A DNA stretch of 19,897 bases from a bacterium ADurb.Bin374. GTDB lineage: Bacteria; Riflebacteria; Ozemobacteria; Ozemobacterales; Ozemobacteraceae. Shown here piece by piece: positions 597-18,400 of the stretch; the first letter of the stretch is position 1, and each line of letters begins with the position of its first letter. A program made the translations under genes and the position numbers. Below the pieces are notes generated by a model that saw only the letters and a list, made by a program, of their open reading frames with translations, ran no database searches and was not told where the DNA came from. The DNA is taken from the NCBI GenBank assembly GCA_002068715.1, contig MWAR01000100.1, positions 1-19,897 on the forward strand, in the 5' to 3' direction.

Positions 597-2069
597 TTGA
601 GCAACGAGACGACATTTCGGATGTCCGGCGGGCATCCGGCGATCGTATTCCGGCTGGATGGCGGCGCCATGGCCTGGCAGGACTGGATGTGCCAGCCGGT
701 CGCCCTGCTTGCCGAAACGCCCGGCAGCCCCGATCGCGCCGTTCTGCTGTCGTTTCAGACGGGGAGTGCACTTGCATCCGTGGCCGTTCCGCAGGAGATC
801 CTGGCCGCCCTGAAACCCGCGAAAGCCCACGTTCTGGCCTCCGGCGACGTTCCCGAATCGCAGGATGCCGATGCGGCGGTTGTGAAGCTCGAGCCGTTCG
901 ACGCCTCGGGGTTTCTGCACGAAGGCATCAAAAAGCAGATGCGGGGCGAGCTGGAAGCAGCCGTCGAAGCATACGGCCGTGCCGAAGCCGAAGTGCCGGG
1001 GTTGCCCCGCGCCGCGAATCTGCGCGGGCTGTGCCTGCGGCTCCTGGGCCGCAACGAGGAAGCGGAGGCCGCATACCGGCATGAAATCGAGATTTCTCCG
1101 GCCATGCCCGACGCGTTCGCGAATCTCGGCATTCTGTTCGCGCGCGCCGGTCGCAACGCCGAGGCCCGTGCAATGTTCGAGAAGGCGCTCGATCGCGACC
1201 AGTTCTACCTCAACGCCCTGCTGCACTTCGCCAGGCTGCTCGCCGCCGAGGGGCAGAAGGCATCGAAACTGTTCGCCTCGCTGAACATGCGCCTCCTGGG
1301 GGCCTGGGCCGACGTGCCTCAGGCGCAGGAACATCTCCTCGCGATGGCATCGGCCTGCGGCGCCTCGCCCGCAGAATTCGCCGCCCTGCTGAGGGCGGAA
1401 GCAGGCTGGCTGGCCGATCCATTCGTCCTCCAGACGATGAAACGGTGCGAGATCCTGCGCCTGAACGGCGCGTTCATCGCCGCATTGCGGGGCTACGGCG
1501 TCCTGCTCGACCGCACGGCCGGCACGCCGACGGCCGCCTTCTTCCGAAACTGGGTGACGAGGCGAAACGCGCTGGTCGAAACAATGCTTAAAGATATATA
1601 TAAAAAAGAATGGAATAGCCTGAAAGCGGAGCTGCAGACCCGCCATCCGGAACTCGCGCCGACTCCCGCCGACACGCCGGCCGATGCCGGCCGGGACGCG
1701 CAGCCCGAACGTGTCGGGGCGATGGGGCCCGAAGAGTTTTATGCGATCATCGTGACCGAGATCCTGCGCGATGGCCAGGTGTCGCGCCACGAAGCGGAGC
1801 TTCTCGGGAAGTTCCGCGCGGTCCTGCGCATCTCCGACCAGGCCCACGCCCGGATCCTCGACGGGGCGGTTGCCGCGACCGCGCGCAGCCCCATGACCGA
1901 CGGCGGCGGCGAGTTCCGGAGCGAGGCGTTCTTCCGGCGGCTGGCTGCGGCCGTGGTCCGCGACGGGAAAATCGACGAACTCGAGCGGAAGCTGGTAGTT
2001 CTTGCCGCTCAGGCGCTCAATGTATCATCCGATGCGGTCAAGGCCGCATTCCGCGAGGTGACAGCATGA
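597..2069 (+). CDS. TPR protein with C-terminal TerB-like domains
   Basis: This 490-residue cytoplasmic protein starts at TTG 597, supported by AGGAGGA at 584-590 with six bases of spacing. Residues 1-100 form a beta-rich region I do not recognise. Residues 105-210 contain three tetratricopeptide repeats with the usual small/aromatic pattern ('AVEAYGRAEAEVPG', 'AEAAYRHEIEISP', 'ARAMFEKALDRD'), so it is probably a protein-interaction scaffold. A helical middle follows. Residues 378-490 hold two similar all-helical units ('EILRDGQVSRHEAELLGKF' and 'AVVRDGKIDELERKLVVLA'), each with the acidic loop-helix pattern of TerB/DjlA-type domains. No enzyme motif is seen. It is the first gene of a tight cluster; its stop overlaps the next start by 4 nt. 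An AT-rich codon island lies at 1587-1619. The biological role is unknown. Confidence 0.72.
   Translation: MSNETTFRMSGGHPAIVFRLDGGAMAWQDWMCQPVALLAETPGSPDRAVLLSFQTGSALASVAVPQEILAALKPAKAHVLASGDVPESQDADAAVVKLEPFDASGFLHEGIKKQMRGELEAAVEAYGRAEAEVPGLPRAANLRGLCLRLLGRNEEAEAAYRHEIEISPAMPDAFANLGILFARAGRNAEARAMFEKALDRDQFYLNALLHFARLLAAEGQKASKLFASLNMRLLGAWADVPQAQEHLLAMASACGASPAEFAALLRAEAGWLADPFVLQTMKRCEILRLNGAFIAALRGYGVLLDRTAGTPTAAFFRNWVTRRNALVETMLKDIYKKEWNSLKAELQTRHPELAPTPADTPADAGRDAQPERVGAMGPEEFYAIIVTEILRDGQVSRHEAELLGKFRAVLRISDQAHARILDGAVAATARSPMTDGGGEFRSEAFFRRLAAAVVRDGKIDELERKLVVLAAQALNVSSDAVKAAFREVTA
1587..1619 (+). other. AT-rich rare-codon island B
   Basis: A 33-nt A/T-rich patch inside GC-rich coding sequence covers residues 331-341 of the TPR/TerB gene, with codons such as AAA GAT ATA TAT AAA AAA. 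It contains AGATATATA (1592-1600), which recurs at 3756-3764. Flanking codons return at once to G/C-ending usage. Confidence 0.6.
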
Positions 2070-2713: not shown

Positions 2714-2719
2714 CCCGGA

Positions 2720-2775: not shown

Positions 2776-2798
2776 AATAGGATCCCAAGGAGCTTCAC

Positions 2799-3899
2799 AT
2801 GCGACTGTCCCTGCGTATTCTTCTCTGCCTCTTCCTGATCGGAGCGTTCGTAACATCTCCGGTCGCGGCCGATATGCCGAAACTGCCGCCCTGGTACGGG
2901 TTCGATGCCTCGCTGGCCGACATCCCGCGGATAGGCGTTCCGGTCGATGTCCTTGCCACCGTCACGTCCTGTCTCGGCGATCTCGAAGACGTCGATGTCT
3001 CGCTCCTTCTCCCCCCGGGATGGACCCAGACACCCCGGGAGGAACCGAAAGGCCGCCTCGGGTCCGGTTCCAGCAGACTTTTCAGGTTCACCGTCACCCC
3101 GACCGGCCCCCTCCCGAACGGCTCCATCGGCTGCAAACTCCGGGTTCGCACCCCGAAGGTCGAATTGATCCGAGAAGCCGGCAGTCGCTTCCCCGAGGAG
3201 GCAAATAAAATAGCCCAAACGATAAATGCCTGGCCGGATATGCACGAGGCGTTCGCGGACATGGCGTTCGCCCTGTACAAAGAGGAGGGCTTCTATCCCC
3301 TCGGGCCGGATATGTGGATCACCTACGATGACAGGCTCAGGCCCGAAGGGGCCGTGCGCGGGCCCAGCCTGTACCGGGATGTCATGATCACGCCGTTCCA
3401 GGCCCAGACCGACGTCGAGATGTTCGACAAACTCCAGGCGCTTCTCAAAAGTGATCCGAAGCTGGGGCCATCGCTCGCCGACAAGGGCATCGATCTGACG
3501 AAGAAGAGAGTCGACCAGCTGCTCGGCCTGTATGTGCTCGCCGTCGAGGCGTATCTGAAGAGCGATTTTCCGGCGGCGGAGGCCCTTTTGAATCGCTTCG
3601 TGACCGAAAGCGGGGAAACGCCCGCCGTGCCCGTCGAACTGGCCGTCGCCGCAGAAAACCTGCGGGGGCTCGCCGCATGGGCATCCGGCGACCGCAGAAC
3701 GGCGGAACAGGCACTGCAGAAAGCATTCTATAAGAACCGGAAACTACCCATCCAGAGATATATATTGAGAAATATAGGGCTGCTGATGATTGCGAAGGGC
3801 GATCGGTCTAGCGCTCGCGAGATGTTTCGGTTGGCCACCGAGATGAAGCCGGCCTACGTTCTTGCCGGCGAGGAATACGCCCGGCTGAAGGAACGCTGA
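2799..3899 (+). CDS. Secreted TPR-containing protein
   Basis: This 366-residue protein has an ATG preceded by AAGGAG (2787-2792). Residues 1-25 are a classical Sec signal peptide with a basic start, a Leu-rich core and a likely cleavage after 'PVAA'. Residues 40-130 are beta-rich and Ig-like, with two Cys near residues 58 and 111 that could form a disulfide. The C-terminal third (about residues 235-366) is helical with two or three TPR-like units ('AEALLNRFVTESG', 'AEQALQKAFYKNRKLP', 'AREMFRLATEMKPA'). It is probably periplasmic or surface-exposed and may assemble with partner proteins. It directly abuts the following gene and contains two AT-rich islands (3201-3227 and 3756-3779). No enzymatic function is recognisable. 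Confidence 0.7.
   Translation: MRLSLRILLCLFLIGAFVTSPVAADMPKLPPWYGFDASLADIPRIGVPVDVLATVTSCLGDLEDVDVSLLLPPGWTQTPREEPKGRLGSGSSRLFRFTVTPTGPLPNGSIGCKLRVRTPKVELIREAGSRFPEEANKIAQTINAWPDMHEAFADMAFALYKEEGFYPLGPDMWITYDDRLRPEGAVRGPSLYRDVMITPFQAQTDVEMFDKLQALLKSDPKLGPSLADKGIDLTKKRVDQLLGLYVLAVEAYLKSDFPAAEALLNRFVTESGETPAVPVELAVAAENLRGLAAWASGDRRTAEQALQKAFYKNRKLPIQRYILRNIGLLMIAKGDRSSAREMFRLATEMKPAYVLAGEEYARLKER
3201..3227 (+). other. AT-rich rare-codon island C
   Basis: Residues 135-143 of the secreted TPR protein use AAT, AAA, ATA, CAA, ATA, AAT in close succession, with two ATA codons. Neighbouring codons are G/C-ending. Confidence 0.45.
3756..3779 (+). other. AT-rich rare-codon island D
   Basis: Residues 320-327 of the secreted TPR protein are encoded by AGA TAT ATA TTG AGA AAT and then ATA GGG. 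The patch shares AGATATATA with the island at 1592-1600. It lies in a TPR helix, 120 nt before the stop codon. Confidence 0.6.
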
Positions 3900-6263
3900 T
3901 TGACGATCGATCCCGTTGCGGCGCTTCTCGAAGACCTGTCGTCGCCTGACCCGACGATCAGGTTCTCCGTTCTGTCCCGCATCGAGGATGTCGAGTGGAC
4001 GGCCGAAACGCTCGCGGCCTTCAAGCGGCGCGCCGCGACGGAAGCGGACCCTGGAACGCGGTTCCAGATGCAGAAGCTGCTGGCACGGATCGAACGGACG
4101 GCCGGAACTGTTTCCGCGGGCTCTGAAGGCGCTCTGGCCGAACTCGAAGCCCTCCTGAAGGATCCGGGGCGTGACGATCTGAGCCTTGCGATCGTCGTCG
4201 AAGGTATCCGGCGCGGCGATGCGCCGCTCGCCGCGATCGCCCTCCGTGAAGCGGACTGGTGGAACTTTTCGACCGAACTGCTCCCATCTATCCTTCAGTT
4301 TTTCAAAAAATTCGGCTCGGCCGAGGATGTGGCCCAGATCGAGACGATGTGCCGGCATGCCGATCCGCGCGTCCTGACGACGGCGGTCGAGGCGCTCGAG
4401 AAGCTGAGCCCGGACAGCCTGAAAGAGCTGATCGTTCCGCTGCTCGTGAACCCCGTTCACGGGATTCGCTCCCGTGCGATCCGGCTCCTCTACCGCTGGG
4501 ATCCCCAGGAAGCGCTGAACCATTTCGAGGCGGCGCTGTTTTCCGAGGATGCGAACGATCGCAACGCCGCCCTGTTTCAGGCGTTCTTCTTCCCGTTTCC
4601 CGAGATCGAGCCGCTCATGCTGCGATTCATCGCGATCGAGGATACGCCGTCGCTGCTCGAGAAAGCCGGCTTCCTGTTCCGGGCGAATCCGGCTCCCGAA
4701 GAGCCCCTGCGGCTTCTCGAAGTGCGCGAAAACTGTCGCGGCGAGAAGCGGAAGATCATCGGCGAGATCCTGTCGGGGGTGATCCAGTCCCTCCACCAGG
4801 CGGGGCTCGTTCAGAAGACGCCCGATCAGCTGACGCTCGAGCTCGAGGAAGTCTACCAGCGGCGGAAAGCCCGCCAGCTCATCGAAGGGTGCAGCCTTTC
4901 TCTCGCTTCCCAGGATGCCGAGACCCGGAAACAGGCGGCGCTGCGCCTGTGCGATTTCGCCCGGCTTGGGTACCAGGAGGCCCGCAGTTGTCTAAGCGGC
5001 TGGATCGGTGGCGAGGCGGATGCCGACGTCCGGGCCGCGATACACTCACGCCTTGCCGCTCTCGACGAAAAAGCCGCTGCCGCGGCCGACCTTGATCTGC
5101 AGAAGCTGCAACCGGAACAGCGGATGAGGCTGCTGGCCGGCCTCGACGGCGAGCGATTCAAAAAGCTGAGGCCGAAACTGCGAGAGTTCATGCGGAGCTG
5201 TACGCCCGAGGAGCGGTTGCTGGCTGTGCAGACCATCGGACGGGTGGGTGACAAGTCCGACGCCGGGCTGATCACAGGATACCTGGCTGGCGGGGAACCG
5301 CCCGTCGCCGCCGCCGCCATCGAGGCCCTGGGCTCGCTCGATCTCGATGTGCTGTCGCCTTATCTGCCCAAGCTGATCCAGCACCCGGCCGACGAGGTTC
5401 GGGCCGTCGCCGTTCGGGTGTTCGCGTTGTTCGACAAGAAACAGGCCCTGTCGCTGGTCGAGAAGATGTTCGCCTCGATCCAGCCCAGACAGCGGGCCTA
5501 TGCGATCTCGTGCGCCTCGCAGTTCGACTTTCCCGCCGTCCGAGAAATGCTGATCTCCTCGCTCCAGCGGGAACAGGACCCAGAAAATATTGGACAATAT
5601 ATAGCTATCTTCAAGGCGAACATGGACGAGGACCTCTGGATCAGCGTCTTCAGGATCGTCGAAAACACCCAGGGAACGCGGCAGGAAATGCTGCTCGCCC
5701 TGTGCAGAGAGGCTGCGGAGAACCTGTCTTCCGGCGGCCAGCCCGAAAAGCATTTCGAGTTCCTGAAAGGAAAGGCTCGGACACGGTTCGAGGCGGAGCG
5801 GGCGAAGAAAGCCACGGCCCAGCCGTCGTATGCCTTGTCGAACATCCAGAAGATTCGCAAACAGCAGGCGGAAAGGGCGAAAGAGCCGAATGCCGACCCG
5901 GGCCTGGTGTCGTTCGCGATCGTCTCGGTCCTTGTGGGGGCTGTTGCCACGGCGCTGATCTGGTTCCTGTTCCTCGCACCGCCGTCGGTACCGCCGAAAA
6001 AGCCGGCGAAAACGACGGAAACGACGGCGAAGCCGAAATTCGACAAGCGGCCGAAAAACGTTTCCGGCAACGTCACCGAGGTTTCGGCCGACGGGAAGCG
6101 TTTCACCCTGAAGACCGCCGGTGCAACCGGGGAGACATATCTCATCGAGATTGGAGCCGCCCTCGCCGCGCCTCCGTCCGTCGGTTCTGAATTCAACGGC
6201 CAGATCAAACCTGTTTCGAAAGACGGAACCGGGATTCTCGCCCAACTGATCATGGCCTATTGA
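3900..6263 (+). CDS. HEAT-repeat protein with single membrane anchor and small C-terminal domain
   Basis: This 787-residue protein starts at TTG 3900, immediately after the preceding TGA. AAGGAA at about 3888-3893 lies inside the upstream gene, so translation is coupled. Residues 1-600 are a long series of HEAT/armadillo-like helical pairs (for example 'DPTIRFSVLSRIEDVEW', 'DPRVLTTAVEALEKLSP', 'HPADEVRAVAVRVFALF'), a protein-binding solenoid. A basic, coiled-coil-prone region follows at about 610-660. A single hydrophobic helix at about 669-697 ('FAIVSVLVGAVATALIWFLF') is followed by a Lys/Thr/Pro-rich linker and a small beta-rich domain (718-787) resembling an OB fold. The likely topology is a cytoplasmic solenoid with an extracytoplasmic C-terminal domain. 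It may couple cytoplasmic partners to the periplasm, next to a secreted TPR protein; this is inference. An AT-rich island lies at 5583-5606. Confidence 0.7.
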   Translation: MTIDPVAALLEDLSSPDPTIRFSVLSRIEDVEWTAETLAAFKRRAATEADPGTRFQMQKLLARIERTAGTVSAGSEGALAELEALLKDPGRDDLSLAIVVEGIRRGDAPLAAIALREADWWNFSTELLPSILQFFKKFGSAEDVAQIETMCRHADPRVLTTAVEALEKLSPDSLKELIVPLLVNPVHGIRSRAIRLLYRWDPQEALNHFEAALFSEDANDRNAALFQAFFFPFPEIEPLMLRFIAIEDTPSLLEKAGFLFRANPAPEEPLRLLEVRENCRGEKRKIIGEILSGVIQSLHQAGLVQKTPDQLTLELEEVYQRRKARQLIEGCSLSLASQDAETRKQAALRLCDFARLGYQEARSCLSGWIGGEADADVRAAIHSRLAALDEKAAAAADLDLQKLQPEQRMRLLAGLDGERFKKLRPKLREFMRSCTPEERLLAVQTIGRVGDKSDAGLITGYLAGGEPPVAAAAIEALGSLDLDVLSPYLPKLIQHPADEVRAVAVRVFALFDKKQALSLVEKMFASIQPRQRAYAISCASQFDFPAVREMLISSLQREQDPENIGQYIAIFKANMDEDLWISVFRIVENTQGTRQEMLLALCREAAENLSSGGQPEKHFEFLKGKARTRFEAERAKKATAQPSYALSNIQKIRKQQAERAKEPNADPGLVSFAIVSVLVGAVATALIWFLFLAPPSVPPKKPAKTTETTAKPKFDKRPKNVSGNVTEVSADGKRFTLKTAGATGETYLIEIGAALAAPPSVGSEFNGQIKPVSKDGTGILAQLIMAY
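5583..5606 (+). other. AT-rich rare-codon island E
   Basis: Codons GAA AAT ATT GGA CAA TAT, then ATA GCT, encode residues 562-569 of the HEAT protein in an otherwise GC-rich gene. The patch contains AATATATAG. It sits between two HEAT units. Confidence 0.55.
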
Positions 6264-7786: not shown

Positions 7787-10347
7787 CTCGGTGCGACGCG
7801 GCGGGTCGGAATGGCCGTGAACGGGTCTTCCGGCCAGGGGTGGCGCGGATACTGGCCGCGCATCTCGCGTCTGAGCGCGGGGTAGGCGTTCAGCCAGAAG
7901 CTGCGCAGGTCCTGGGTGATCTGAAGCGGCCTGCCCGCGGGCGAGAGCAGATGCACCAGCACGGGAACCCGCCCGTCGACGACCTTCGGTGACTCGGTGA
8001 GGCCGAACAGTTCCTGGAGCTTGACGGCCAGCACCGGTGGCCCTTTCTGCTGGTATTCGAGACGGATCCGGCTTCCGGAAGGCACCGGCAAACGTTCCGG
8101 AACGAGCAGCTCGACGGCCTGCCGCTGTCTGTGAGTGAGGCGCGAGATCATCTCGCGACACAGATCGATACGCCGGAGTTCGGCGAAGCTTCTCGAACCA
8201 AGGCAGATTTCTGGGAGATGATCGGCCCACCATCCGACATCGATGACCGGAAGGGAATATTCGGAAGCGGCGCTGCGAAGCAGTTCGAATCTCAGCAGAA
8301 GCTGATCGAACTCCTCCGGCCAGGCGAAGGCGCGGCGCAGGTCTTTCGCCGCCTCTGTTGCGAGAAGCCTCGAAGCCGTCTCAAGCTCGTCCGGGGCGAT
8401 CGGCACGACCGTTTCTTCCAGCGGAAGGTCGAGATACCGTTTCCGCCTGCGCGCGACGATCGCTTCCTTTGCCGGGTCGAAAAAGACCTCACGCTCGGTT
8501 CCGACGGCGTAGGGAAACAGGTCGGCGAGCCATGCCGGTTCCACGGCGGATGCCCAGCGGATCAGCGCTTCGTTTCCGACACCCCGACCGGCCGCGGCGT
8601 CGGCGGAAGGCACGGTGACCAGTTCTTCATCGCGCACGGAGCACGCGGGGCTGAGGACAAGCCCGCGGCCGCCCGCCATTCTGAACTGGAGGCTGTTCTC
8701 GGCGCGTCTTCGCGCCACTCGGTCGGGATATCCGGCCAGAACGGTCTTCAGAAGCAGGGTTTCACGCTCCGCTCCGGCCGGGGGCGAGATGTTTTTCGCG
8801 GCGGTGCCGGCCAGCGCCGAGAGCTGCTGCGAGACACGGTCGGCCGTTGCGGCGGCCCGCATGTCGGTCCGGTCGCCATGGCCTCGAAAACCGCATGCGC
8901 GAGCTTCCTCGAGAAGATCGAGACGCAGGAGAAGGTCGCTGCGGGTGACGATGCGGGTTTCGCGGTCCTGGGTGCGCACGGCGATGTCGCGTTCCCCGAG
9001 CAGGGCCGCGAGATCGGCTCCCTGCTTCGCCATGCCGTGCCTGGCGGCGAACAGGAGCATCCGCGCGAGGCGTGGCGCGGCCGGGACCTCGGCCATCTTC
9101 GCGCCAAGCGGAGTGATGGCGCCAGAGTGGTCGAGAGCGCCGAGCGTTTTCAGGAGCTCTACGGCGGCGGCCATCGCCGGAGCCGGCGGGGCCTCGAACC
9201 AGCCGAAGGATGCCGGGTCGGTTTTTCCCCAGGTGGCGAGCGTGAGAAAAACGCCGGCAAGGTCGACCCGCCGGATGTCCGGTGGCGTCGAATCGGGCAG
9301 GAGAACGTGATCGGTTTCCGGCCAGAGGCGGAGCACCCGGCCCGGCCCGAGACGGCCGGCGCGGCCGGCGCGCTGTTCGGCGCTTGCCTTGCTGATCCGC
9401 TCGAGTTGGAGCTTTTCGAGACCCGTTTGCGGATCGAGCCGCAGGATGCGGCACCAGCCGCTGTCGACGACTGTCGTGATCCCTTCGATCGTCAACGATG
9501 TTTCGGCTATATTTGTAGATATAATAATTCTTCGTTTTCCCGACGGCTTCAGGGCGTCGTCCTGCCGGTCGAGGGGAAGACTGCCGTGCAGGGGAACCAG
9601 GGAAACGTCGCGGGTCGCTGTCGACTCCGAGAGGAGATCCATGGTTCTGGCGATTTCCCCGGCTCCCGGAAGGAAGACCAGCATGTCGCCTCGAAGCGGA
9701 TCGTTCGTGAGTTCCCTGAGCGCCGCGTCGGCCGTCGCCCTGCAGATGTCGGGGCCTGACTGCTTCAACGCCCACACCCGGGTGACGGGGTGGAGAAACC
9801 CTTTGCCCTCGAGCGACGGGCAGGGGGAGAGAAAACGGCAGATCGGCGTCGGATCGAGCGTGGCGGACATGACGAGGATCCGCAGGTCCGGTCGCACCGT
9901 CTGCTGAATCTCACGCGTCATGGCCAGACCGAGATCGCCCTGCAGACTGCGCTCGTGAAATTCATCGAAGATGACGAGGCCGACGCCTTCGAGAAACGGG
10001 TCGCCTTGGAGTCTGCGCGTCAGAAGTCCTTCGGTCAGAACTTCGAGGCGCGTGGCCGGCCCTGTGCGCTTGTCGAACCGCACCTGATACCCGATCGTCT
10101 CGCCGAGGCGCGTTCCATGAAGCGCCGCCATCCGGCGTGCCGACGATAGCGCCGCCACGCGGCGGGGCTGGAGCATCAGGATACGCTCGCCGGACATCCA
10201 TGTCTCGTCGAGGAGGGCGAGCGGGACGATCGTCGTCTTTCCAGCGCCGGGCGCCGCCGTCAGGACGAGATTCCGGCCTTCCGTCAGGATGCGCCTGATG
10301 TCGGGAATCGTTTCCGAGATGGGAAGCGAGGGCAGGCTGTTGCGCAT
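7777..10347 (-). CDS. hrpB: ATP-dependent DExH helicase HrpB
   Basis: This 856-residue helicase has all superfamily-2 DExH motifs in order: Walker A 'APGAGKTT' (32-39), 'DEFHER' near 127, 'MSATLD', motif V 'STNIAETSLTIEGI' (277-290) and motif VI 'QRAGRAGRLG' (about 319). The C-terminal HrpB-specific region ends with 'FWLNAYPALRREMRG' and 'YPRHPWPEDP', typical of the family, and the length is normal. It is predicted to unwind RNA or RNA-protein complexes using NTP; its cellular role in most bacteria is poorly defined. The open frame extends 50 codons further upstream, but that part overlaps the SpoIIE gene and lacks homology-like sequence. ATG 10347 overlaps that gene's stop (TAATG), and no Shine-Dalgarno site precedes it, so it is probably translated by reinitiation. 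An AT-rich island lies in motif V. Confidence 0.92.
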   Translation of the reverse strand: MRNSLPSLPISETIPDIRRILTEGRNLVLTAAPGAGKTTIVPLALLDETWMSGERILMLQPRRVAALSSARRMAALHGTRLGETIGYQVRFDKRTGPATRLEVLTEGLLTRRLQGDPFLEGVGLVIFDEFHERSLQGDLGLAMTREIQQTVRPDLRILVMSATLDPTPICRFLSPCPSLEGKGFLHPVTRVWALKQSGPDICRATADAALRELTNDPLRGDMLVFLPGAGEIARTMDLLSESTATRDVSLVPLHGSLPLDRQDDALKPSGKRRIIISTNIAETSLTIEGITTVVDSGWCRILRLDPQTGLEKLQLERISKASAEQRAGRAGRLGPGRVLRLWPETDHVLLPDSTPPDIRRVDLAGVFLTLATWGKTDPASFGWFEAPPAPAMAAAVELLKTLGALDHSGAITPLGAKMAEVPAAPRLARMLLFAARHGMAKQGADLAALLGERDIAVRTQDRETRIVTRSDLLLRLDLLEEARACGFRGHGDRTDMRAAATADRVSQQLSALAGTAAKNISPPAGAERETLLLKTVLAGYPDRVARRRAENSLQFRMAGGRGLVLSPACSVRDEELVTVPSADAAAGRGVGNEALIRWASAVEPAWLADLFPYAVGTEREVFFDPAKEAIVARRRKRYLDLPLEETVVPIAPDELETASRLLATEAAKDLRRAFAWPEEFDQLLLRFELLRSAASEYSLPVIDVGWWADHLPEICLGSRSFAELRRIDLCREMISRLTHRQRQAVELLVPERLPVPSGSRIRLEYQQKGPPVLAVKLQELFGLTESPKVVDGRVPVLVHLLSPAGRPLQITQDLRSFWLNAYPALRREMRGQYPRHPWPEDPFTAIPTRRVAPRKK
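9508..9531 (-). other. AT-rich rare-codon island F in helicase motif V
   Basis: On the coding strand, residues 273-280 (Arg-Ile-Ile-Ile-Ser-Thr-Asn-Ile) use AGA ATT ATT ATA TCT ACA, then AAT ATA. The residues are among the most conserved in the protein, so the AT richness is a synonymous choice. On the + strand the patch with its left flank reads CGGCTATATTT (9504-9514), also found at 6880-6890 in the flagellin promoter, then TAGATATA. Confidence 0.6.
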
Positions 10348-13229
10348 TACGACGGGGCTTTGGGGGATTCGGGCGGGGTCGGGGCAGACGCTCGGGTGAG
10401 GACGAGCAGGGTGATGTCGTCTTCCTGCATCGTGTCGGTCGTGAGGTCTCGATGCCAGGCGAATATGCGTTCGCAACTCTTGCGCGCATCGTCGCAAAGA
10501 CGTATGGCGATCTCTTCGCTCATGCGCTGATACCCGACCGGCTGGCTTCCGACCTTCGCCTCGATGATGCCGTCGGTGTAGAACACGATGCGGTCGCCCG
10601 GCAGAAGATCCGTCTCGGCCGGTGTCAGCAGGTTCTTCTTCATGCTTCCGAGGGGCAGTCCGTTCAATTCGAGGAAGAGCGGCGGCTGGCCGGTACGAAA
10701 CTTCACCGGGTAATTATGCCCGGCGTTCGCGTATGCCATCTTGTTCCGGGCAGGGTCGAGGATGGCGAGAAAACAGGTCATCATCCGCTTCCGCTTCAGT
10801 GTTCTGAATAACACTCGATGTATGACGTTTAATATTGATTCCGGGGTCGTCGGCTGTTCGATCTCGCGCTCGACGAGCGCCTTCGCCATGGCCATGACGA
10901 GGGCGGCCGGAACACCATGGCCCGAGACATCACCGACCAGAAGGAGGACCCTGCCGTCGGGAAGCTGCTGGAGATCGAAATAGTCTCCGCCCAGCGCCGT
11001 CATGGTATGGGACTCGCCGTAGATCCCGTATTCGCCGGCCTTTACCTCGTTCGAGGGAAACAGGCTCTCCTGGACGATTTTCGCGACTTCGAGGTCGGCG
11101 AGGCCTTCCATGACGCCATTGAACGTCCGGGCGAGATCGCCCAGTTCATCCTGGCCGGCGTCCGGGACGCGATGTGAAAATTTGCGCTGGCTGATCGCGT
11201 CGACGCCTGTCGCCAGCTCGCCGATCGGCGTGAGGAAGCGTTGGGAGAGATGGATGCCGAGGAAGATGCTCATAACGATGATCATGCCGGCGAACACCCA
11301 GATCCGGCGCTCGAGCAGTTTCATCTCCTCGATGATCGGCGCTTTCGGGACGAGACCGATCAGGAGATGATTCGTCAGTTCCTTTGGTTTGATGCCGGTC
11401 GCAAGCCAGACCTGATCGAGCCCGGTGAGCTGGCCGATCGTCGTCGACTGTTTTAGCCTGAGATCGGAAAGAAGCGGGGCCAGCCGTTTCGCGAGAGGAA
11501 AGTCGACCGGCGTGTTTTTCTCGCTCGAATTCCACCCGTAGATGCGCAGTCCCGGCAATGCCCGCTGGGACGGCACGAGATATTTCGATAGATATACACA
11601 CTCGAGAGCGAACTTCCGCCAGTAGGCAAGCATCATGTGGGTGACCCGGCCGCTCGAATTCCTGACGGGGAGCATCAGCATCCAGGTCTCGTTTCCGGCA
11701 AGCGACAGATTGAGGATGCGGCCGATTTCCCGGGTCAGGTTGGTCGCGAGGTTCTCTCCGTGAGCGAGCGTTTCCATGATGAGGGACGCGGTGTCGAGCT
11801 TGCCGGAGTATCGTTCCTGGTTCAGGTTCGCGATGACCTGGGCCCCGACGAGTCCCATCATCTTCCTCGCCTTCCGGCCCTCCTCGCTCGTTTCCTTGTC
11901 GAGATCGACGGCCACTTCGCCGGCGGTGTCATACAGAACCATGTTGTTCGAGAGATACCGCCTGTTGAAGAATTCCATCACTTTCCGCACGCGGCCGAGA
12001 TTGTTGCCGTTGGTGCGGCAGGTGTTGACCAGCTTGCCGAACGTGATCTCCATCATGCCGCGCATCTGGGGAAAACGGGCGTCGAAGGCCCGCAGGGCCC
12101 GTTCGCATTCGTCGTGAGTCTGGCGGATGCGGGCTTTGTACTTCTGATCGAGATAATCCATGCCCGCGAAGATGACGACGGCGAGGGGAATGCCGCTCGC
12201 GAAACCGAACAGGACGACGAGCCGCCATCTGATCGGAAACTGGAACCGGACGCCGCGGACCATCACGAGATAGCTGATGATGGTGCAGATGCCGAAAAGA
12301 AGGGAGGCGATCGCCGTGAACAGCAAGCGTGCCTGCGTGAAATCGACGGCCACACTCCTTGGCCGGCTTGCCCAGAGTCGTGAGGTGTGAGTGAGCGGCA
12401 TCACGGTGAACAGCTTGTCGCCGAACAGGTGGTGCTCGCGGGTGGACCGCTGATACTCGCCCAGTGCCAATGCGAGATCTGGGGGTATGGGGGCCTGGGA
12501 GTTGAGATCATGAATGCCGACCGTTATACCAAGGCGAGCGGCACGAGTCTTCATGAAACGGGCCATCAGGTCCCGGATGGCCAGCAGAGGCCAGTCGGGA
12601 ACGTGATTCGCGTGAAAGAAGATGCCGCCCTTCGAGGTGGTGGTATACCCGAACCATCTCCCTTCTTCCAAAAAGGAGGCTTCGAACAGGCTGCGGTGGT
12701 AGAGATTCATCCGCGCCAGCGGGGCTTCTCGACCGATGAATGCCTGGAACATCGACCACATCTGCGCGATTTTGCCGCGCATGACATCGTTTTCGCTGTC
12801 TTCGGGCCGTGCCTCGGCAGGAAATTTCGAAACTGCCTCGTACAGCCGCTTCACGAGAAGTTTCGAGGGGGTGCCGTCCGTGAGTTCAGGAATGATGGTC
12901 CCCTCGGAATCGGTGACGGTGAACCGGAGAATCCCCGGAAACCGCATTTTGAGAGTCGCGATTCCCCGTCGGAGGGTCCCGATCCGGTCGTTCGATCTGT
13001 CTGCGACTTCTCGAAGTTTGGAAACAAGCTTGCCGAGAAGGTCTGCTGTGTTTTCGCGCTTGCGGAACGTCAGAAGCGCATTATCGAGAAGCTGATACGA
13101 TTCCTCGATCGACTCCTGCTCGACGGTGTTCCAGCGGATGCCGAGGCCATACGCGACAAGCAGGACCGGAAGGGCGAAAAAGACGAGGCACGTCGCGATC
13201 CATCGCGTCACAAGGGGCCAACGGTTCAT
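10347..13229 (-). CDS. Membrane SpoIIE/RsbU-type protein phosphatase with two sensor regions and HAMP
   Basis: This 960-residue protein has a first membrane helix at about 8-32, followed by a large extracytoplasmic region (33-300). Helices at about 300-325 and 333-357 flank a short loop. A second large extracytoplasmic region (360-640) precedes a fourth helix at about 640-660, then a HAMP linker (660-710) and a PP2C-like SpoIIE domain (720-955). The metal-binding residues are all present: 'GGDYFD' near 746, 'GDVSGHG', 'AGHNYP', 'FYTDGIIEA' and 'EDDITLLVL' near 938. It should dephosphorylate a phosphoserine on a STAS antagonist in response to external signals, releasing an anti-sigma or other partner. 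Having two separate sensor regions in one chain is unusual; I do not recognise either as a standard Cache or PAS domain. The ribosome site is weak. The stop codon shares its last base with the start of hrpB. AT-rich islands occur at 10800-10838 and 11580-11600. Confidence 0.88.
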   Translation of the reverse strand: MNRWPLVTRWIATCLVFFALPVLLVAYGLGIRWNTVEQESIEESYQLLDNALLTFRKRENTADLLGKLVSKLREVADRSNDRIGTLRRGIATLKMRFPGILRFTVTDSEGTIIPELTDGTPSKLLVKRLYEAVSKFPAEARPEDSENDVMRGKIAQMWSMFQAFIGREAPLARMNLYHRSLFEASFLEEGRWFGYTTTSKGGIFFHANHVPDWPLLAIRDLMARFMKTRAARLGITVGIHDLNSQAPIPPDLALALGEYQRSTREHHLFGDKLFTVMPLTHTSRLWASRPRSVAVDFTQARLLFTAIASLLFGICTIISYLVMVRGVRFQFPIRWRLVVLFGFASGIPLAVVIFAGMDYLDQKYKARIRQTHDECERALRAFDARFPQMRGMMEITFGKLVNTCRTNGNNLGRVRKVMEFFNRRYLSNNMVLYDTAGEVAVDLDKETSEEGRKARKMMGLVGAQVIANLNQERYSGKLDTASLIMETLAHGENLATNLTREIGRILNLSLAGNETWMLMLPVRNSSGRVTHMMLAYWRKFALECVYLSKYLVPSQRALPGLRIYGWNSSEKNTPVDFPLAKRLAPLLSDLRLKQSTTIGQLTGLDQVWLATGIKPKELTNHLLIGLVPKAPIIEEMKLLERRIWVFAGMIIVMSIFLGIHLSQRFLTPIGELATGVDAISQRKFSHRVPDAGQDELGDLARTFNGVMEGLADLEVAKIVQESLFPSNEVKAGEYGIYGESHTMTALGGDYFDLQQLPDGRVLLLVGDVSGHGVPAALVMAMAKALVEREIEQPTTPESILNVIHRVLFRTLKRKRMMTCFLAILDPARNKMAYANAGHNYPVKFRTGQPPLFLELNGLPLGSMKKNLLTPAETDLLPGDRIVFYTDGIIEAKVGSQPVGYQRMSEEIAIRLCDDARKSCERIFAWHRDLTTDTMQEDDITLLVLTRASAPTPPESPKAPS
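10800..10838 (-). other. AT-rich rare-codon island G
   Basis: Within the SpoIIE domain, residues 798-810 use TCA ATA TTA AAC GTC ATA, then CAT CGA GTG TTA TTC AGA and ACA. Two ATA, two TTA and one AGA codons fall within 39 nt, against G/C-ending codons on both sides. Confidence 0.55.
11580..11600 (-). other. AT-rich rare-codon island H
   Basis: The coding strand reads TGT GTA TAT CTA TCG AAA, then TAT, in the second extracytoplasmic region of the phosphatase. On + it contains ATATTT (11579-11584) and TAGATATA (11589-11596), the same word pair as island F. Confidence 0.5.
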
Positions 13230-13377: not shown

Positions 13378-13443
13378 CGATGAAATCCTCTTGTGCTAAA
13401 AAAAGAGATTCGGCCATATGTGGGAACGCCAGGAAAGCCCGCC

Positions 13444-13503: not shown

Positions 13504-13507
13504 ATTT

Positions 13508-14191
13508 GTGGGCGCAGGGATGATGCCGTCGAAAGTCGATCCGGTCCTGTCTTCCGGGGGGGCGCAGATGCGGGAGCGGCTCCTGGAGGTAGCATTGGAA
13601 CTGTTTTCCAGGCATGGCTACAGCGGGACAACGGTAAGTGCGATCGTCACCGCAGCCGGGGTCACCCAGCCCATGCTCTATTACTATTTCAAAAACAAGC
13701 AAGCATTGTTCGAGGCGTTGGTGGAGCAGGCGCTGATCGGCTACGACCAGCTGCTTCAGCACGATCTGCCTGGCGGTCTGTCCCCCAAACAACAGCTTCT
13801 CGAACTGTGCCGGCAGGGGCTTCTCGCATCAGGGCAGAACCCCGTCCTGACGAGACTGTTGTTCAGCCTGGCGTTTTCCCACTCCGAGGAAGTCGGGATC
13901 TGCGAACGTGTCGATGCCGTCATTCAGCGGTTTCTGAAAACGCTGGAAGGGATCATCCGTCGTGGTATCGCCGCCGGCGAGATCATGGACGTGGATCCGG
14001 CGGACCTGGCCTGGGCCATCTATGCCGTCCTTTTTCGGGCGATGGAATCAGCCCTGATAAACGTGCCGACGAATCCCGGGGTCGACGGGATGAGCCGCGT
14101 GATCGCGAACATCCTGCTGCCGCCTCCGGGCAAGGGACGTGTCAATGCGGGATGCCTGAAAAGCCGGTCGACGAAACGTCGCGAAAAGTGA
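13508..14191 (+). CDS. TetR/AcrR-family repressor of the efflux operon
   Basis: This protein has 227 residues from GTG 13508. The N-terminal helix-turn-helix is classical: 'MRERLLEVALELFSRHGYSG', then 'TTVSAIVTAAGVTQPMLYYY' and 'FKNKQALFEAL' (about residues 21-70). The C-terminal helical region would bind ligand and dimerise. The start is uncertain: GTG 13508 has no good ribosome site, ATG 13520/13523 follow GCAGGG too closely, and ATG 13568 sits at the usual TetR domain edge behind a G-rich run. It is the first gene of an operon with the adaptor and RND pump and lies just downstream of a palindrome it very likely binds. A small CGACG/CGTCG hairpin lies at its 3' end (14169-14181), without a T-run. 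Confidence 0.9.
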   Translation: MGAGMMPSKVDPVLSSGGAQMRERLLEVALELFSRHGYSGTTVSAIVTAAGVTQPMLYYYFKNKQALFEALVEQALIGYDQLLQHDLPGGLSPKQQLLELCRQGLLASGQNPVLTRLLFSLAFSHSEEVGICERVDAVIQRFLKTLEGIIRRGIAAGEIMDVDPADLAWAIYAVLFRAMESALINVPTNPGVDGMSRVIANILLPPPGKGRVNAGCLKSRSTKRREK

Positions 14192-14226
14192 TATATATGC
14201 AATATAAAATATATGAAGTTATATGC
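14190..14226 (+). other. AT-rich spacer between tetR and the adaptor gene
   Basis: Thirty-seven nearly pure A/T bases rich in ATATAT begin in the tetR stop codon. A small hairpin, TGCAC (14224-14228) with GTGCA (14233-14237), follows, and then the ribosome site GGGGGGAC at about 14244-14251. TATAAA at 14203-14208 could act as a -10, but no matching -35 was found. The base composition matches the intragenic islands and contrasts sharply with the flanking genes. Confidence 0.55.
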
Positions 14227-14255
14227 ACTTGCGTGCAGCGACTGGGGGGACATCG

Positions 14256-15479
14256 ATGAAACCGACCGGCATGCGCATGATGCTGCTCGCGGCTGCGGCC
14301 AGTCTCGCCGGGTTGTCCGGCTGTGCGGACGGGGAACGGCCGGTGGTGAAACGTCCCGTACCCGTAACCGTCGGAATCGTGTCGGACCACGAGCGGGCGG
14401 TTTCGCTCAGATATTCCGGAACCATCGAGCCGGGGGTCGTCGTTCCCGTGGCCTTCCGAACCGGGGGATACGTGAAGCGGATCGCTGAAATCGTCGAGCC
14501 CGCCGGATTCGCGAGGTTGTTGCAGACCGGCGATCGCGTCGCCTCGGGGGCTTTTCTGGCCCAGGTCGAGGACCGGGAATACCGTTCGCGCATGTCACAG
14601 GCACAGGCGGGCGTTCTCGAAGCGCAATCGGGGCTAATCGCGGTTCAGGCACAGGCATCCGCCGCCGCGAACACGGCCCGGCAAGCACAGGACGATTATC
14701 TGCGTGCCGAGCGACTGTTCGCGAACGACACCATCACCCGCGTCGACCGCGATACGGCGCGGACGCGCAGCCGCAATGCGGATGAAGCCCTCGCCGCCGC
14801 CCGGGCTTCCGTCGAGGCCGTCCGGGCGAAAATCCAGGCGGCGCAGGCCATGGTGCGCGAGATCGAGTCCGTGACGAGCGATACCTCGCTGCGATCTCCT
14901 CTCGAGGGATTCGTCCTTTCCCGGAACATCGAGTCCGGGGCCCTCATCGGCCCGGGGACGGTGGGGTTCGTCGTTGCGCAGATCGATCCGCTCAAACTCA
15001 GGTTTTCCATTCCCGACCGGCTTCTGGACAAGGTTTCCGTCGGCATGGAACTCGAAGGCACGCTCGATTTCCGGCCGGAATACCGGGTGCGGGGAAACGT
15101 GACTAAGATCGCCATGAGCGCCGATCAGAAGACTCGCCTGTTCGACGTCGAGGTGACGATTCCAAATCCCGAGGCCGTCCTGAAGCCGGGAATGATCGTC
15201 CAGGTCGGGTTGCCCCCTGACATGGGAAAGGGAATCGGGCTGATCCCTCTCGAAGCAATCGTCCCGGGACCGGGCGACGGGGAATCCTTTGCCGTCTTCC
15301 AGCTGACCGCTTCGGAGGGCAGAACCATCGCCCATCGCCGGGAGGTGAAGCTTGGCCGACCGGTCGGTAACCGCATCTCCGTCGAATCCGGCGTTCTTCC
15401 AGGGGAAAAAATCGTCATTTCCGGGGCGGCATTCCTCGAAGACGGCGACCAGGTCCACGTTGTCGAAGAGTCGCGGTGA
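14256..15479 (+). CDS. RND efflux periplasmic adaptor (membrane fusion) lipoprotein
   Basis: This protein has 407 residues from ATG 14256, chosen because a G-rich ribosome site (14244-14251) precedes it and because it then begins with a clean lipoprotein signal ending 'LAGLSGC' (Cys about residue 23). An in-frame ATG at 14223 lacks a ribosome site. The order of parts is that of AcrA/MexA relatives: a beta-barrel and lipoyl half ('GYVKRIAEI', 'GDRVASGAFLAQVEDREY'), an Ala/Gln-rich helical hairpin (about 110-205), the second lipoyl half ('LRSPLEGFVLSRNIESGALI'), a beta-barrel domain and a membrane-proximal domain. It should bridge the permease encoded next to an outer-membrane channel. The stop overlaps the ribosome site of the permease gene. 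Confidence 0.92.
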   Translation: MKPTGMRMMLLAAAASLAGLSGCADGERPVVKRPVPVTVGIVSDHERAVSLRYSGTIEPGVVVPVAFRTGGYVKRIAEIVEPAGFARLLQTGDRVASGAFLAQVEDREYRSRMSQAQAGVLEAQSGLIAVQAQASAAANTARQAQDDYLRAERLFANDTITRVDRDTARTRSRNADEALAAARASVEAVRAKIQAAQAMVREIESVTSDTSLRSPLEGFVLSRNIESGALIGPGTVGFVVAQIDPLKLRFSIPDRLLDKVSVGMELEGTLDFRPEYRVRGNVTKIAMSADQKTRLFDVEVTIPNPEAVLKPGMIVQVGLPPDMGKGIGLIPLEAIVPGPGDGESFAVFQLTASEGRTIAHRREVKLGRPVGNRISVESGVLPGEKIVISGAAFLEDGDQVHVVEESR

Positions 15480-15488
15480 GGCGACGCC

Positions 15489-18400
15489 ATGTCATCGCAT
15501 CTCGACGCCACTCCCCGAGAGGAAACATCCCTCCGGACGGCCCTTCCCCGGTTCTTCGTCCGGTCCAGGCAGGTCGCCTGGGTCTTGCTGATCTCGGTGC
15601 TGCTCTGGGGTGTCTACGGATATCTCGGAATGCCGCAGCGCAAGGATCCGGAAATTCCGGTCCATCTCGCGGTTGCCATCACGGCCTGGCCGGGGGCTTC
15701 GGCAGAGAAGATCGAACAGCTGGTGACCAGGCGGATCGAGACGAAGGTCGCCGAGAACGCATGGGTCGAAACCATCGAGTCGACCTCGCGCACGAACGTG
15801 TCGATCGTGTTCGTGACGCTCGACAAGCGGCTTGCCGAGACGGGAAGAGAGTTCGACGACATCGCCCTCAAGCTGAACACCGTTTCCCTTCCGGCCGGGG
15901 CGGGGCCGATCAATTTCATCAAGGATTTCGGCGACACCTCGGCGCTGATGCTGACCGTCGCGAGCCCGCTCGTCGACGGGAAGGAGATAGAGGTTCGCGC
16001 CCGTTTCCTCCGGGATGAAATCCTGAAACTGCGCTCCGGCGCCTCCTCGCCGGACAGGGTGTCGGCCGTGCTGTGCCTGCCGCATTTTCCCGTGAGGGAT
16101 TTCCTGGCCCGCCCGGTCCGGATGTTCGCCCGGTTTCTGCAGGAGAAAGCCCGGGCGACGGACATTCGCACGTTCGAGATCGCCGGCATGGTCGGGGCCG
16201 ATTTCTCCAGCCCGCTGCCCGACGAACGGATCAAATCGTTGATCAAGGCGTTTCTCGAGGACGAGATGCAGTGGCCGGAACTATCGCTCGAAGCCTGGGA
16301 ACCGTTTCTCGTGCGTGACCCCGCCGCGACGCGTGAAGCGATGGCCGCGGTGGCCGGGCCGAAGTTTTCCTATCGACAGCTCGATACAATGACCGAGCTG
16401 ATCGAGAAAAACCTCAAGACGCTGCCTCAGGTTTCGAAGGTCAATCGGGTCGGCCTCCTCCAGGAGGCGATTTACCTGGTCTTCAAGCAGGAACGCCTTG
16501 CCGCCCAGGGCCTCAAGCCCGCCGATCTCCCGGCGCTGCTCGAAGCCAGAAACCGTCTTCAGCCGGGGGGCATGCTGAACATCGCCGATCGGAACATCAT
16601 GATCGAGGGATCGGGCGCCTTCCAGAGCCCGGAGGAGCTCGGAAGCGTGCTTCTATCGGTCGGAAACTCCGGAACGCCGCTCTATCTCCGTGACCTGTTC
16701 GAGCAGTTCCGCGGCTACCAGGATCCGCCCAGGTTCCTGAACTACCTCTCGAAGCCCGATGCCCAGGGGGCATGGAAGCGGTTACCCGCCGTCACGATTG
16801 CCGTGCAGATGCGGCCGGGCGAAAAGATCGGCCGATTCGGGGCGGAGGTCGACAGGGTGCTGGAAACGGTTCGGCAGCAACTTCCAGCCGAGCTGATTCT
16901 CGAGCGGACCTCGGACCAGCCGGTTCAGGTCAGTGAAAACATCCATCTGTTCATCAAGAGCCTGATCGAAGCCGTCATCCTGGTGGTCCTGATCTCCTGG
17001 ATCGGATTCTGGGACTGGCGAACCGCACTGCTGCTGGCCGCATCCATTCCACTCACTCTGGCGATGACCTTCGGCATGATGCATCTGCTTCGCATCGATC
17101 TGCAGCAGGTGTCGATCGCCTCGCTGATCATCGCGCTGGGACTGCTGGTCGACGTCCCTGTCGTCGCGGGCGACTCGATCAAGCGCCTTCTGGGAAACGG
17201 CGTTCCGGCCTCGCAGGCCTGCTGGCTCGGCCCCTCGCGGCTCAACAAGGCGCTGTTCTTCGCCACCCTCACGAACATCGTTGCATATCTGCCGTTCCTG
17301 ATGCTGTCCGGAAACGTCGGCCGGTTCCTGTACAGCCTGCCCGTGGTCATCACCTGCTCTCTTATAGCTGCAAATATTGTATCGCTGACATTCGTTCCGC
17401 TGTTGAGTCGCTTCCTGCTGCGGCCCGTTCCGGAACCATCGATCGGGGAACTCCGGAAAACTCCGCTGTATGCTGCATACGGGCGGCTCATGGAGACGGC
17501 CATCGCCCACCGGAAGATGGTCCTGCTGCTTGCACTCTGCCTGCTGATTCCGGGTGCGATCGCGTTTTCAAGCCTTCCGCGGCAGTTCTTCGCGAAGGAT
17601 CTCTCGTATCTGAGCTACGTCGACGTTTGGCTGCCGGATGATGCGCCGCTTTCCGCGACGAACGAGATCGCCGCGAAGGCGGAGGTGGTCATTCGAGACA
17701 CGGCGGAACAGTGGGGAAAGGAACATCCCGGCATGGTCGGAGCTTCGGGGCTGGTGCTGGCGAACCTGACGACGTTCGTCGGCGGAGGCGGTCCCCGGTT
17801 CTGGTTCTCAGTCTCGCCCGAGCTGCAGCAGCTCAACTACGCTCAGATCCTCGTCGAAGTCACCGACAAGCAAGCCACCCGGTTCCTGGTGCCGCGGTTG
17901 CAGGAAGCCCTGTCGGCGCGGGTTCCGGGCGCCCGGTTCGATGTCCGCCAGCTGGAGACCGGCGAACCAGTCGGGGTGCCCGTTTCCCTGCGCATCTTCG
18001 GGCAGGACCTCGCGGAACTCCGCGAACAGGCGGCGCGTCTCAAAAAGCTGCTCTCGGCCTGCCCGTTTTCGGAGCGTGTCCGAGACAACTGGGGAACGCC
18101 CAATCTGACGCTCTCTCTCGAGACGCTCGGCGATCGGGCCAACCTCTCCGGCATCACGCATCTAGACGTGACGTCGGCGGCGGCGATCGCGGTGAACGGC
18201 TTCCCCCTGACGAAATACCGGGAAGGCGACAAGGAGATCCCGGTCATTGCCCGCTCCGCGATGGAAAACAGGGCGCACCTCTCGGATCTGGAAAATCTGT
18301 ATGTGTTCTCGCTCCTGACGAACCAGCGGCAGCCGCTCGGCCAGGTCGCCAACCTCGAATACCAGCTGAAGCCCGAGAAAATCCAGCGACGCAATCAATT

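What the first reader, a model, noticed from the sequence alone, without database searches (positions are those of the whole stretch)
1587..17381. Recurrent 20-40 nt AT-rich islands embedded in GC-rich genes
Eight discrete patches (1587-1619, 3201-3227, 3756-3779, 5583-5606, 9508-9531, 10800-10838, 11580-11600, 17358-17381), plus a milder one at 228-251, switch abruptly to A/T-ending codons and back. By eye, about twelve of some seventeen ATA codons I located in the real genes fall inside them; TTA, CTA and AGA also cluster there. Words such as AGATATATA, TAGATATA and ATATAG recur, on both strands and in unrelated genes, and similar sequence lies between genes (14190-14226, 19084-19105). Spacing is roughly one per 1-2 kb. 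Known single causes (foreign DNA, low-complexity protein) do not fit, because frames and conserved residues are intact. Possible explanations, all inference: binding sites for a nucleoid-associated or chromosome-organising protein, intragenic promoters, or programmed rare-codon pauses.
Basis: partly seen in the sequence, partly recalled or inferred. Interest (0 to 1): 0.7.

Follow-up and report, generated by a model that had tools for sequence, protein, structure and literature searches.

The report
Evenly spaced paired AT-site genome motif
The short AT-rich patches inside these GC-rich bacterial genes are copies of one hidden two-armed DNA signal, repeated and evenly spaced in one little-known lineage and written into genes through synonymous codons, most likely as docking sites for a chromosome-binding protein that has not yet been identified.

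Summary
The window belongs to an uncultured Candidatus Ozemobacteraceae lineage (closest held genome G001, 89% DNA identity). AT islands in coding sequence exceed a synonymous-codon shuffle, here and in G001. They share a palindromic bipartite motif, ATATAT-N6-ATATAT (core TATA-N8-TATA, arms 12 bp apart). Whole G001 has 334 TATA-N8-TATA against 10 with N9; none of 38 other genomes of the phylum resembles this. In G001 sites lie in every codon phase and between genes and are more evenly spaced than chance, about one per 2.4 kb; between the two species both arms are kept at 8 of 8 testable sites (controls 5 of 16). Codon pausing, foreign DNA and intragenic promoters are therefore unlikely main causes. 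Best reading: binding sites of a homodimeric protein acting along the whole chromosome (nucleoid-architectural). An uptake-signal-like drive is the main rival. No binding protein was found. The motif is well established; its function is inferred.

The parts
227..254 (.). Site in the ORF 3-548 (score 13.5)
   Evidence: not aligned in the relative, so conservation untested
1591..1618 (.). Site in TPR gene 597-2069 (score 19.8); left arm ATATATAT strong, right arm degenerate
   Evidence: left arm unchanged in L001, right part diverged; no exact TAT/ATA-N9 pair, so not among the 8 conservation tests
3203..3230 (.). Site in gene 2799-3899 (score 16.0; ATA-N9-ATA at 3210)
   Evidence: both arms kept, 7/9 inner bases kept in the relative
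3753..3782 (.). Site in gene 2799-3899 (score 18.7; TATA-N8-TATA at 3761)
   Evidence: arms kept
5580..5607 (.). Site in HEAT-repeat gene 3900-6263 (score 20.0; TAT-N9-TAT at 5588)
   Evidence: arms kept, 7/9 inner bases kept
9502..9529 (.). Site in hrpB-type helicase gene, minus strand (score 20.2; TATA-N8-TATA at 9508)
   Evidence: 15/15 kept
10815..10842 (.). Site in SpoIIE-phosphatase gene 10347-13229, minus strand (score 13.7; TAT-N9-TAT at 10821)
   Evidence: arms kept while only 5/9 inner bases are kept
11575..11602 (.). Site in SpoIIE-phosphatase gene, minus strand (score 20.1; TAT-N9-TAT at 11581)
   Evidence: arms kept, 8/9 inner bases kept
14188..14229. Two overlapping sites between the tetR-family gene and the next gene (scores 17.2 and 19.7; 20.6 for the right one)
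   Evidence: the alignment to the relative is gapped here, not testable
17357..17384 (.). Weak site in gene 15489-19082 (score 10.2 or about 12; TAT-N9-TAT at 17363)
   Evidence: 15/15 kept
19081..19108 (.). Strongest site of the window (score 25.8; TATA-N8-TATA at 19087), intergenic, just after gene 15489-19082
   Evidence: arms kept in one of two overlapping registers, 7/9 inner bases kept
288..315 (.). Doubtful site, A-tract type rather than TATA type (score 11.1)
   Evidence: outside the aligned part
19350..19377 (.). Doubtful weak site (score 12.2) in gene 19178-19792, minus strand

Best explanation
The islands are copies of a palindromic bipartite DNA element, ATATAT-N6-ATATAT, with an AT-biased stretch of about 22-28 bp, dispersed about every 2.4 kb through genes and intergenic DNA. 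SHOWN: the motif, its rigid arm distance, its absence from the other genomes of the phylum searched, its even dispersion in the part of G001 read, retention of its arms between two species, and its effect on codon choice. INFERRED: a homodimeric sequence-specific DNA-binding protein reads the two TpA-rich arms, one per subunit; selection for at least one site every few kilobases, as expected of a nucleoid-architectural protein that must act all along the chromosome (folding, bridging or condensing), keeps the arms and overrides the GC-rich codon bias inside genes.
For: Motif: EM on 79 islands beats dinucleotide-shuffled islands (log-likelihood 260 against 78-86 at width 16). TAT-N9-TAT is the most enriched triplet pair at any distance 3-33 (470 against 74, z 46). 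Whole G001: TATA-N8-TATA 334, N9 10; ATAT arms 423 against 37. Spacing is not codon periodicity: N5 8, N8 45, N11 11. Coding sites at score 14: 136 against 9.8 after synonymous shuffle; seven relatives show no excess at scores 7, 9 or 11. 60 of 61 strongest islands contain it; 191 of 608 ATA codons lie in the 1.0% of CDS inside sites. DNA level: all codon phases and intergenic; no significant sense-strand asymmetry (P 0.06); no hairpin-like covariation. Conservation: arms kept 8 of 8 against 5 of 16 control pairs; A/T-ending codons unchanged 45/55 in sites, 644/1156 elsewhere, P 1e-4. Even spacing: neighbours under 500 bp 23 against 42.3 +- 5.0; 10-kb segment variance/mean 0.52, P 0.004; without the five contigs picked for a related word, 21 against 36.9 +- 4.9 and 0.58, P 0.016; fewer close neighbours than expected in each of five subsets. 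[quoted passage not shown]
Against: No binding protein found: H-NS, Lsr2 and MucR Pfam models gave no hit in G001 or 23 relatives, HU has three hits in G001 as in 13 of 23 relatives, the MvaT model rang nowhere, controls included. Even spacing has also been described for uptake sequences (PMC1939737). Only one relative and 8 sites could be tested for conservation. In the window alone the exact-pair count at gap 9 (9) barely exceeds that at gap 7 (8), so the spacing case rests on G001. Chromosome-scale layout could not be seen: G001 is fragmented and about 14% of it was read.
Confidence: 0.5

Rival explanations
1. An uptake-signal-like sequence: the lineage is naturally transformable and its uptake machinery prefers DNA carrying the motif, so sites accumulate by molecular drive wherever the protein allows.
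For: Dispersion through genes and intergenic DNA, restriction to a lineage and reported even spacing resemble DNA uptake sequences as described in PMC1939737 (passages). A ComEC-type (PF03772) gene is present in G001.
Against: Uptake sequences are described there as not palindromic, whereas this is a dyad. The motif is soft rather than a fixed core. PF03772 hits also occur in 23 of 23 family relatives, which lack the motif, so presence is uninformative.
Confidence: 0.22
2. A HIP1-like iterated palindrome maintained by an orphan methyltransferase or repair process rather than by a structural protein.
For: Palindromic, many copies, confined to lineages, as HIP1 and alternate HIPs (PMC4390886, passages).
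Against: HIPs there are contiguous, GC-rich and tied to methyltransferase targets; this one is AT-rich, split and degenerate. Methyltransferases were not examined here.
Confidence: 0.1
3. A conventional transcription factor with an unusually large regulon, or a roadblock or terminator protein acting inside genes.
For: 4-bp arms spaced N8 is a usual helix-turn-helix dimer geometry (LexA CTGT-N8-ACAG, recalled). Tandem intergenic regions have two to three times the per-kb density of genes.
Against: 180 of 252 sites lie in CDS; divergent intergenic DNA has the smallest excess over control; ten proteins encoded beside some of the 13 top intergenic sites show no common theme (seven with a Pfam match, one of them below its cut-off; three without); even spacing is not expected of a regulon.
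Confidence: 0.1
4. Programmed rare-codon pauses or local low-structure mRNA.
For: ATA, TTA and GTA are strongly enriched in the islands.
Against: Sites occur in all codon phases, though unevenly, and in intergenic DNA; a fixed DNA spacing is required; no significant sense asymmetry; AAT, GAT, TAT and CAT are also raised 1.7- to 3.1-fold, although such codons share a tRNA with their C-ending partners (recalled).
Confidence: 0.03
5. Chance AT-rich patches or foreign DNA fragments.
For: A few listed patches (10800, 228, 17358) are weak individually.
Against: Synonymous-shuffle nulls, spacing, conservation, intact reading frames.
Confidence: 0.01

Closest known systems
DNA uptake sequences of Pasteurellaceae and Neisseriaceae (USS/DUS)
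   Same: Many copies in genes and between them, confined to a lineage, even spacing reported (PMC1939737 passages); a density of about one per kilobase is recalled.
   Different: Those are described as non-palindromic; this is an AT-rich dyad of two soft arms.
HIP1 and alternate HIPs of cyanobacteria
   Same: Highly iterated palindrome, present in some lineages and not in others (PMC4390886 passages).
   Different: HIP1 is the contiguous octamer GCGATCGC linked to GATC/CGATCG methyltransferases; this is split, AT-rich and degenerate.
H-NS / MvaT / Lsr2 / MucR xenogeneic silencers
   Same: Preference of H-NS and MvaT for multiple TpA steps (PMC4466236 passages) matches the arms.
   Different: They target AT-rich, often horizontally acquired regions; here sites sit in GC-rich genes at fixed arm spacing, and no H-NS, Lsr2 or MucR match was detected.
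Chi, KOPS and matS chromosome motifs (recalled)
   Same: Short motifs written into genes for a chromosome-wide process.
   Different: Chi and KOPS are oriented, not palindromic; matS is few copies in one macrodomain.
CtrA sites TTAA-N7-TTAA in Caulobacter (recalled)
   Same: AT-rich split motif in a GC-rich genome.
   Different: Promoter-located regulon; one base shorter spacing; different arms.

Membership tests
Genome-wide dispersed functional DNA motif (kind) | Large excess over composition- and protein-preserving nulls | tested here: met
Genome-wide dispersed functional DNA motif (kind) | Conserved at orthologous positions beyond the protein's need | tested here: met
   8 of 8 testable sites; 45/55 against 644/1156 codons; one relative only
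DNA uptake sequence | Preferential uptake of motif-bearing DNA | not testable with these tools
   needs transformation assays
DNA uptake sequence | Non-palindromic fixed core | tested here: not met
   motif is a soft dyad
HIP1-type palindrome | Contiguous palindrome containing a methyltransferase target | tested here: inconclusive
   not contiguous; methylation and methyltransferases not tested
H-NS/Lsr2/MucR silencer targets | Cognate silencer encoded in the genome | tested here: not met
   0 of 24 genomes, G001 included, each model ringing in one control genome; G001 is a fragmented MAG
MvaT silencer targets | MvaT-type silencer encoded | tested here: inconclusive
   model rang in no control genome
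Nucleoid-architectural protein sites | Dispersed, not promoter-centred, roughly even along DNA | tested here: met
   (about 14% of G001)
Nucleoid-architectural protein sites | Protein bound in vivo and effect on nucleoid structure | not testable with these tools
   needs ChIP or pull-down and imaging or Hi-C
Intragenic sigma-70 promoters | -10/-35 boxes about 17 bp apart, oriented | tested here: not met
   symmetric dyad with 12-bp arm distance; the promoter scan tool was not run

The most novel reading that the evidence does not exclude
A lineage-specific chromosome-organising code: an unknown dimeric protein needs at least one ATATAT-N6-ATATAT site every few kilobases, and the lineage has rewritten synonymous codons across its genes to provide them, at a cost to codon usage, leaving evenly spaced AT islands in a GC-rich genome.
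Probability: 0.45. Interest if true: 0.85.

Novelty: new variant of a known kind. Interest (0 to 1): 0.7.

Why it matters
Few genome-wide DNA signals are known in bacteria, and most were found in model organisms (general knowledge). This one is visible from sequence alone in an uncultured phylum, was found in one lineage only, competes openly with codon usage, and is evenly spaced. It gives a bait for isolating an unknown chromosome protein and a natural case for measuring how strongly a DNA-level signal can override codon selection. It also suggests a general check: clusters of rare codons in GC-rich genomes may be DNA sites rather than translational pauses.

Tried and rejected
Plain words: k-mer enrichment found no single fixed AT word; TATATAT (18 against 1.9) and similar words are fragments of the arms. 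A two-component EM without an AT-rich component collapsed into generic AT windows; adding that component recovered the dyad. N10 spacing beside N8 looked at first like a second geometry; the N10-seeded fit settled on ATAT arms again 12 bp apart, and TA-step distances 10, 12 and 14 exceed their neighbours with 12 the highest, so one arm distance suffices. A third arm at 24 bp was looked for and is not enriched. RNA hairpin: no clear covariation (0.41 against 0.30 at the pair next to the arms, none elsewhere). Known silencers: not found; the MvaT search was uninformative. Genes beside 13 of the strongest intergenic sites were located and 10 of those proteins scanned: no common theme. Low-GC relatives: islands cannot be seen there, but the N8 against N9 test can, and is negative. 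GC-rich relatives G012-G014: no islands at 18 or more. Relatives tested for island excess by shuffle: G003, G005, G007, G008, G002, G006, G012, G013, G014, G019, none with a clear excess. One search stopped on ambiguous bases at G020, so G020 and G021 were not tested, G009 had under 1 kb of coding sequence there, and the other family genomes were not tested for islands. Searches stopped on script errors and were rerun as (the segment statistics had already printed).

Limits: genes were called by a simple codon-usage script, not a standard gene finder; it mis-called the antisense of the hrpB gene, corrected by hand for the window; the same error may occur elsewhere. Of 60 G001 stretches fetched, 18 (C1-C18) were taken blind, two are the contig orthologous to the window, 20 (C155-C174) were a number range where listed AGATATATA matches had shown long contigs, and of the last 20 five were picked because they held such matches. 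Density is the same in the blind set (one site per 2.38 kb), and spacing was repeated without the five. The score-14 training set is selected by score, so its information content (19 bits) is inflated; the mixture fit gives 11.6.
Full report
WHAT THE WINDOW IS. Ten proteins were scanned with Pfam: eight match (TPR, YbjN, HEAT repeats, STAS, flagellin, HrpB-type helicase, SpoIIE phosphatase with HAMP, TetR) and two (3-548, 2799-3896) match nothing. That 14223-19082 encodes an RND-type efflux adaptor and pump is my reading of the sequence; no call. The phosphatase finds one held relative, a Candidatus Ozemobacteraceae MAG, 93% protein identity, whose genome is G001. The aligned DNA is 89.0% identical over 18,682 bases. 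No genome of the window's own is held.

THE ISLANDS ARE REAL. In the window CDS, 24-nt windows with 18 or more A/T number 11 against 3.8 +- 1.3 in synonymous shuffles; in 147 kb of G001 CDS, 18 against 1.4 at 20 or more. In 325 kb the figures are 40 against 2.4. The clear ones are runs of some 8-15 mostly A/T-ending codons, including Ala, Ser, Gly and Pro codons; some longer runs in the list look like mis-called genes or gene starts. ATA is 14-fold, TTA 35-fold and GTA 9-fold enriched in islands, CTA not at all (small counts for TTA). Not every relative does this: GC-rich family members G012-G014 have no islands at 18 or more (null 2.6, 0.5 and 1.6), and the low-GC G003, G005, G007 and G008 show no excess over shuffle.

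THE ISLANDS SHARE ONE MOTIF. EM on 79 islands gave tATAtttnnaaaTATa with a likelihood far above dinucleotide-shuffled islands. A spacing scan of 400 kb (G001 stretches plus window) gave TATA-Nn-TATA counts of 9, 2, 42, 0, 31 for n = 6 to 10. Over all triplet pairs at distances 3-33, TAT-N9-TAT and its complement were the most enriched, 470 against 74. A three-component fit gives a symmetric matrix, ATATAT-N6-ATATAT, strongest at the central A and T of each arm, 11.6 bits; a fit seeded with N10 settles on ATAT arms, again 12 bp apart (11.0 bits). So either phase of the AT alternation serves, at one arm distance, which hints that the TpA-rich shape is read as much as the bases (inference). TA-step distances peak at 12 with shoulders at 10 and 14, as expected of two-step arms at one distance. 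Codon periodicity cannot give this: N5, N8 and N11 are equivalent in phase but count 8, 45 and 11.

IT IS PECULIAR TO THIS LINEAGE. Whole-genome counts over 39 genomes of the phylum: G001 has 334 N8 and 10 N9. The other 38 have N8/N9 ratios of about 0.9 to 2.2, apart from G024 (28/8 = 3.5) and eight genomes with 6 or fewer N8 matches. With the matrix, CDS of seven relatives show no excess over their shuffles at scores 7, 9 or 11. Other species of the window's genus are not held, so its spread within the genus is unknown beyond the window and G001.

IT WAS FOUND AGAIN IN THE WINDOW. A matrix trained on 181 G001 sites, with the two loci of the contig orthologous to the window left out, finds 11 coding sites at score 10 against 1.57 in 200 shuffles (maximum 5), 9 against 0.78 at 12 (maximum 4) and 5 against 0.01 at 18 (maximum 1). 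The two intergenic patches hold the two strongest sites (20.6 and 25.8). The first fit that chose the training sites had included the window as about 3% of its data, so independence is near but not complete. By exact pairs alone the window does not settle the spacing: merged TAT/ATA pairs number 9 at gap 9, but 8 at gap 7 and 7 at gaps 14 and 21, and 0-5 at the other gaps from 3 to 25. In G001 the motif at score 12 is present in 142 of 188 islands with 18 or more A/T (12 of 82 after shuffling), 102 of 115 at 19 (8 of 28) and 60 of 61 at 20 (3 of 5). 191 of 608 ATA codons fall in the 1.0% of CDS inside sites. Masking sites at score 10 removes most of the ATA neighbourhood effect at +-1 to 2 codons but leaves a residue (for example 0.40 at -4), so weaker sites or another effect remain.

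IT ACTS AT THE DNA LEVEL. Sites fall in all three codon phases, unevenly (for example TAT-N9-TAT 59, 33, 30), and in intergenic DNA. The sense-strand matrix is not significantly asymmetric (175 sites, P 0.06), which is borderline. Positions beside the arms show at most weak complementarity (0.41 against 0.30 at the nearest pair) and no hairpin-like covariation.

IT IS CONSERVED. Nine merged TAT/ATA-N9 loci lie in the window; one (14209) is not testable. The other 8 keep both arms in the relative, while inner identity ranges from 5/9 to 9/9. At 19087 one of two overlapping registers is lost. Control pairs at other gaps keep both arms in 5 of 16 cases, Fisher P 0.002; single TAT/ATA triplets elsewhere are kept in 95 of 154. 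One further pair exists in the relative but not in the window (2168). A/T-ending codons with unchanged amino acid are kept in 45 of 55 cases inside sites and 644 of 1156 outside, P 1e-4.

IT IS EVENLY SPREAD. At score 12 there are 252 sites in 602 kb. Neighbours closer than 500 bp number 23 against 42.3 +- 5.0 for random placement; the deficit is smaller at score 10 (65 against 80.2 +- 7.3) and at 16 (5 against 11.1 +- 3.0). The variance/mean ratio of counts in 47 ten-kilobase segments is 0.52 (P 0.004), and each of them has at least one site. Leaving out the five contigs chosen for a related word, the results stand: 21 against 36.9 +- 4.9, and ratio 0.58, P 0.016. In the contigs taken blind the density is one per 2.38 kb and close neighbours are 6 against 9.0 +- 2.2, the same direction but not significant alone. 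For exact-arm pairs the excess over control spacing is about fourfold in CDS, convergent and tandem intergenic DNA but only 1.5-fold in divergent intergenic DNA (controls there were not merged, so these folds are approximate).

HOW IT MOST LIKELY WORKS. A dyad of two 4-6 bp arms with fixed spacing is what a homodimer reads. This is inference from geometry; LexA-type N8 spacing is recalled. Even dispersal, mostly inside genes, points to a role along the whole chromosome. [quoted passage not shown] No H-NS, Lsr2 or MucR match was detected in G001 or its family, and HU is not unusual. An uptake-signal role is the main rival: uptake sequences are also dispersed and were viewed by Karlin et al. as evenly spaced, though the author of PMC1939737 argues they are not as even as compaction would need, and they are not palindromic (passages).

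PRINT RECORD. Searching 5.39 million open papers for six spellings of the motif gave no paper. Searches for the lineage names gave 43 and 3 papers, of which 12 and 3 titles and abstract starts were seen; none of those concerns such a motif. Topic searches were seen as listings only; passages of three papers were read. Subscription journals are mostly not held, so this is not proof of novelty.

CHECK.

Noticed in passing
window 13461-13511: Upstream of the tetR-family gene lies an inverted repeat (ACTTACTGAT ... ATCAGTAAGT), a possible TetR-type operator unrelated to the islands.
   Followed up: no
window 14188-14229 and 19081-19108: The two strongest motif sites of the window flank the pair of genes 14223-15479 and 15489-19082, one on each side; possibly chance, possibly insulating.
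   Followed up: no
G001 coding sequence: TTCTCGA and GCTTCTCGA are strongly over-represented on the sense strand (162 against 48; 33 against 5.1) beyond the synonymous shuffle, less so on the antisense strand (128 against 79; 15 against 9.5); codon-pair bias or an oriented, Chi-like motif.
   Followed up: no
Family genomes G003, G007, G008: TATA pairs are scarce in the 100 kb read of each of these lower-GC relatives at nearly all spacings, as if TATA itself were avoided.
   Followed up: no
window 8131-9756 (+): The antisense frame of the hrpB-type gene is open for 542 codons and looked gene-like to a codon-usage caller; a trap for automatic annotation in this GC-rich genome.
   Followed up: partly
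HEAT-repeat protein 3900-6263: HEAT-repeat relatives seem expanded in the family: 8 to 41 matching places in each of 24 genomes (several places can belong to one gene).
   Followed up: no
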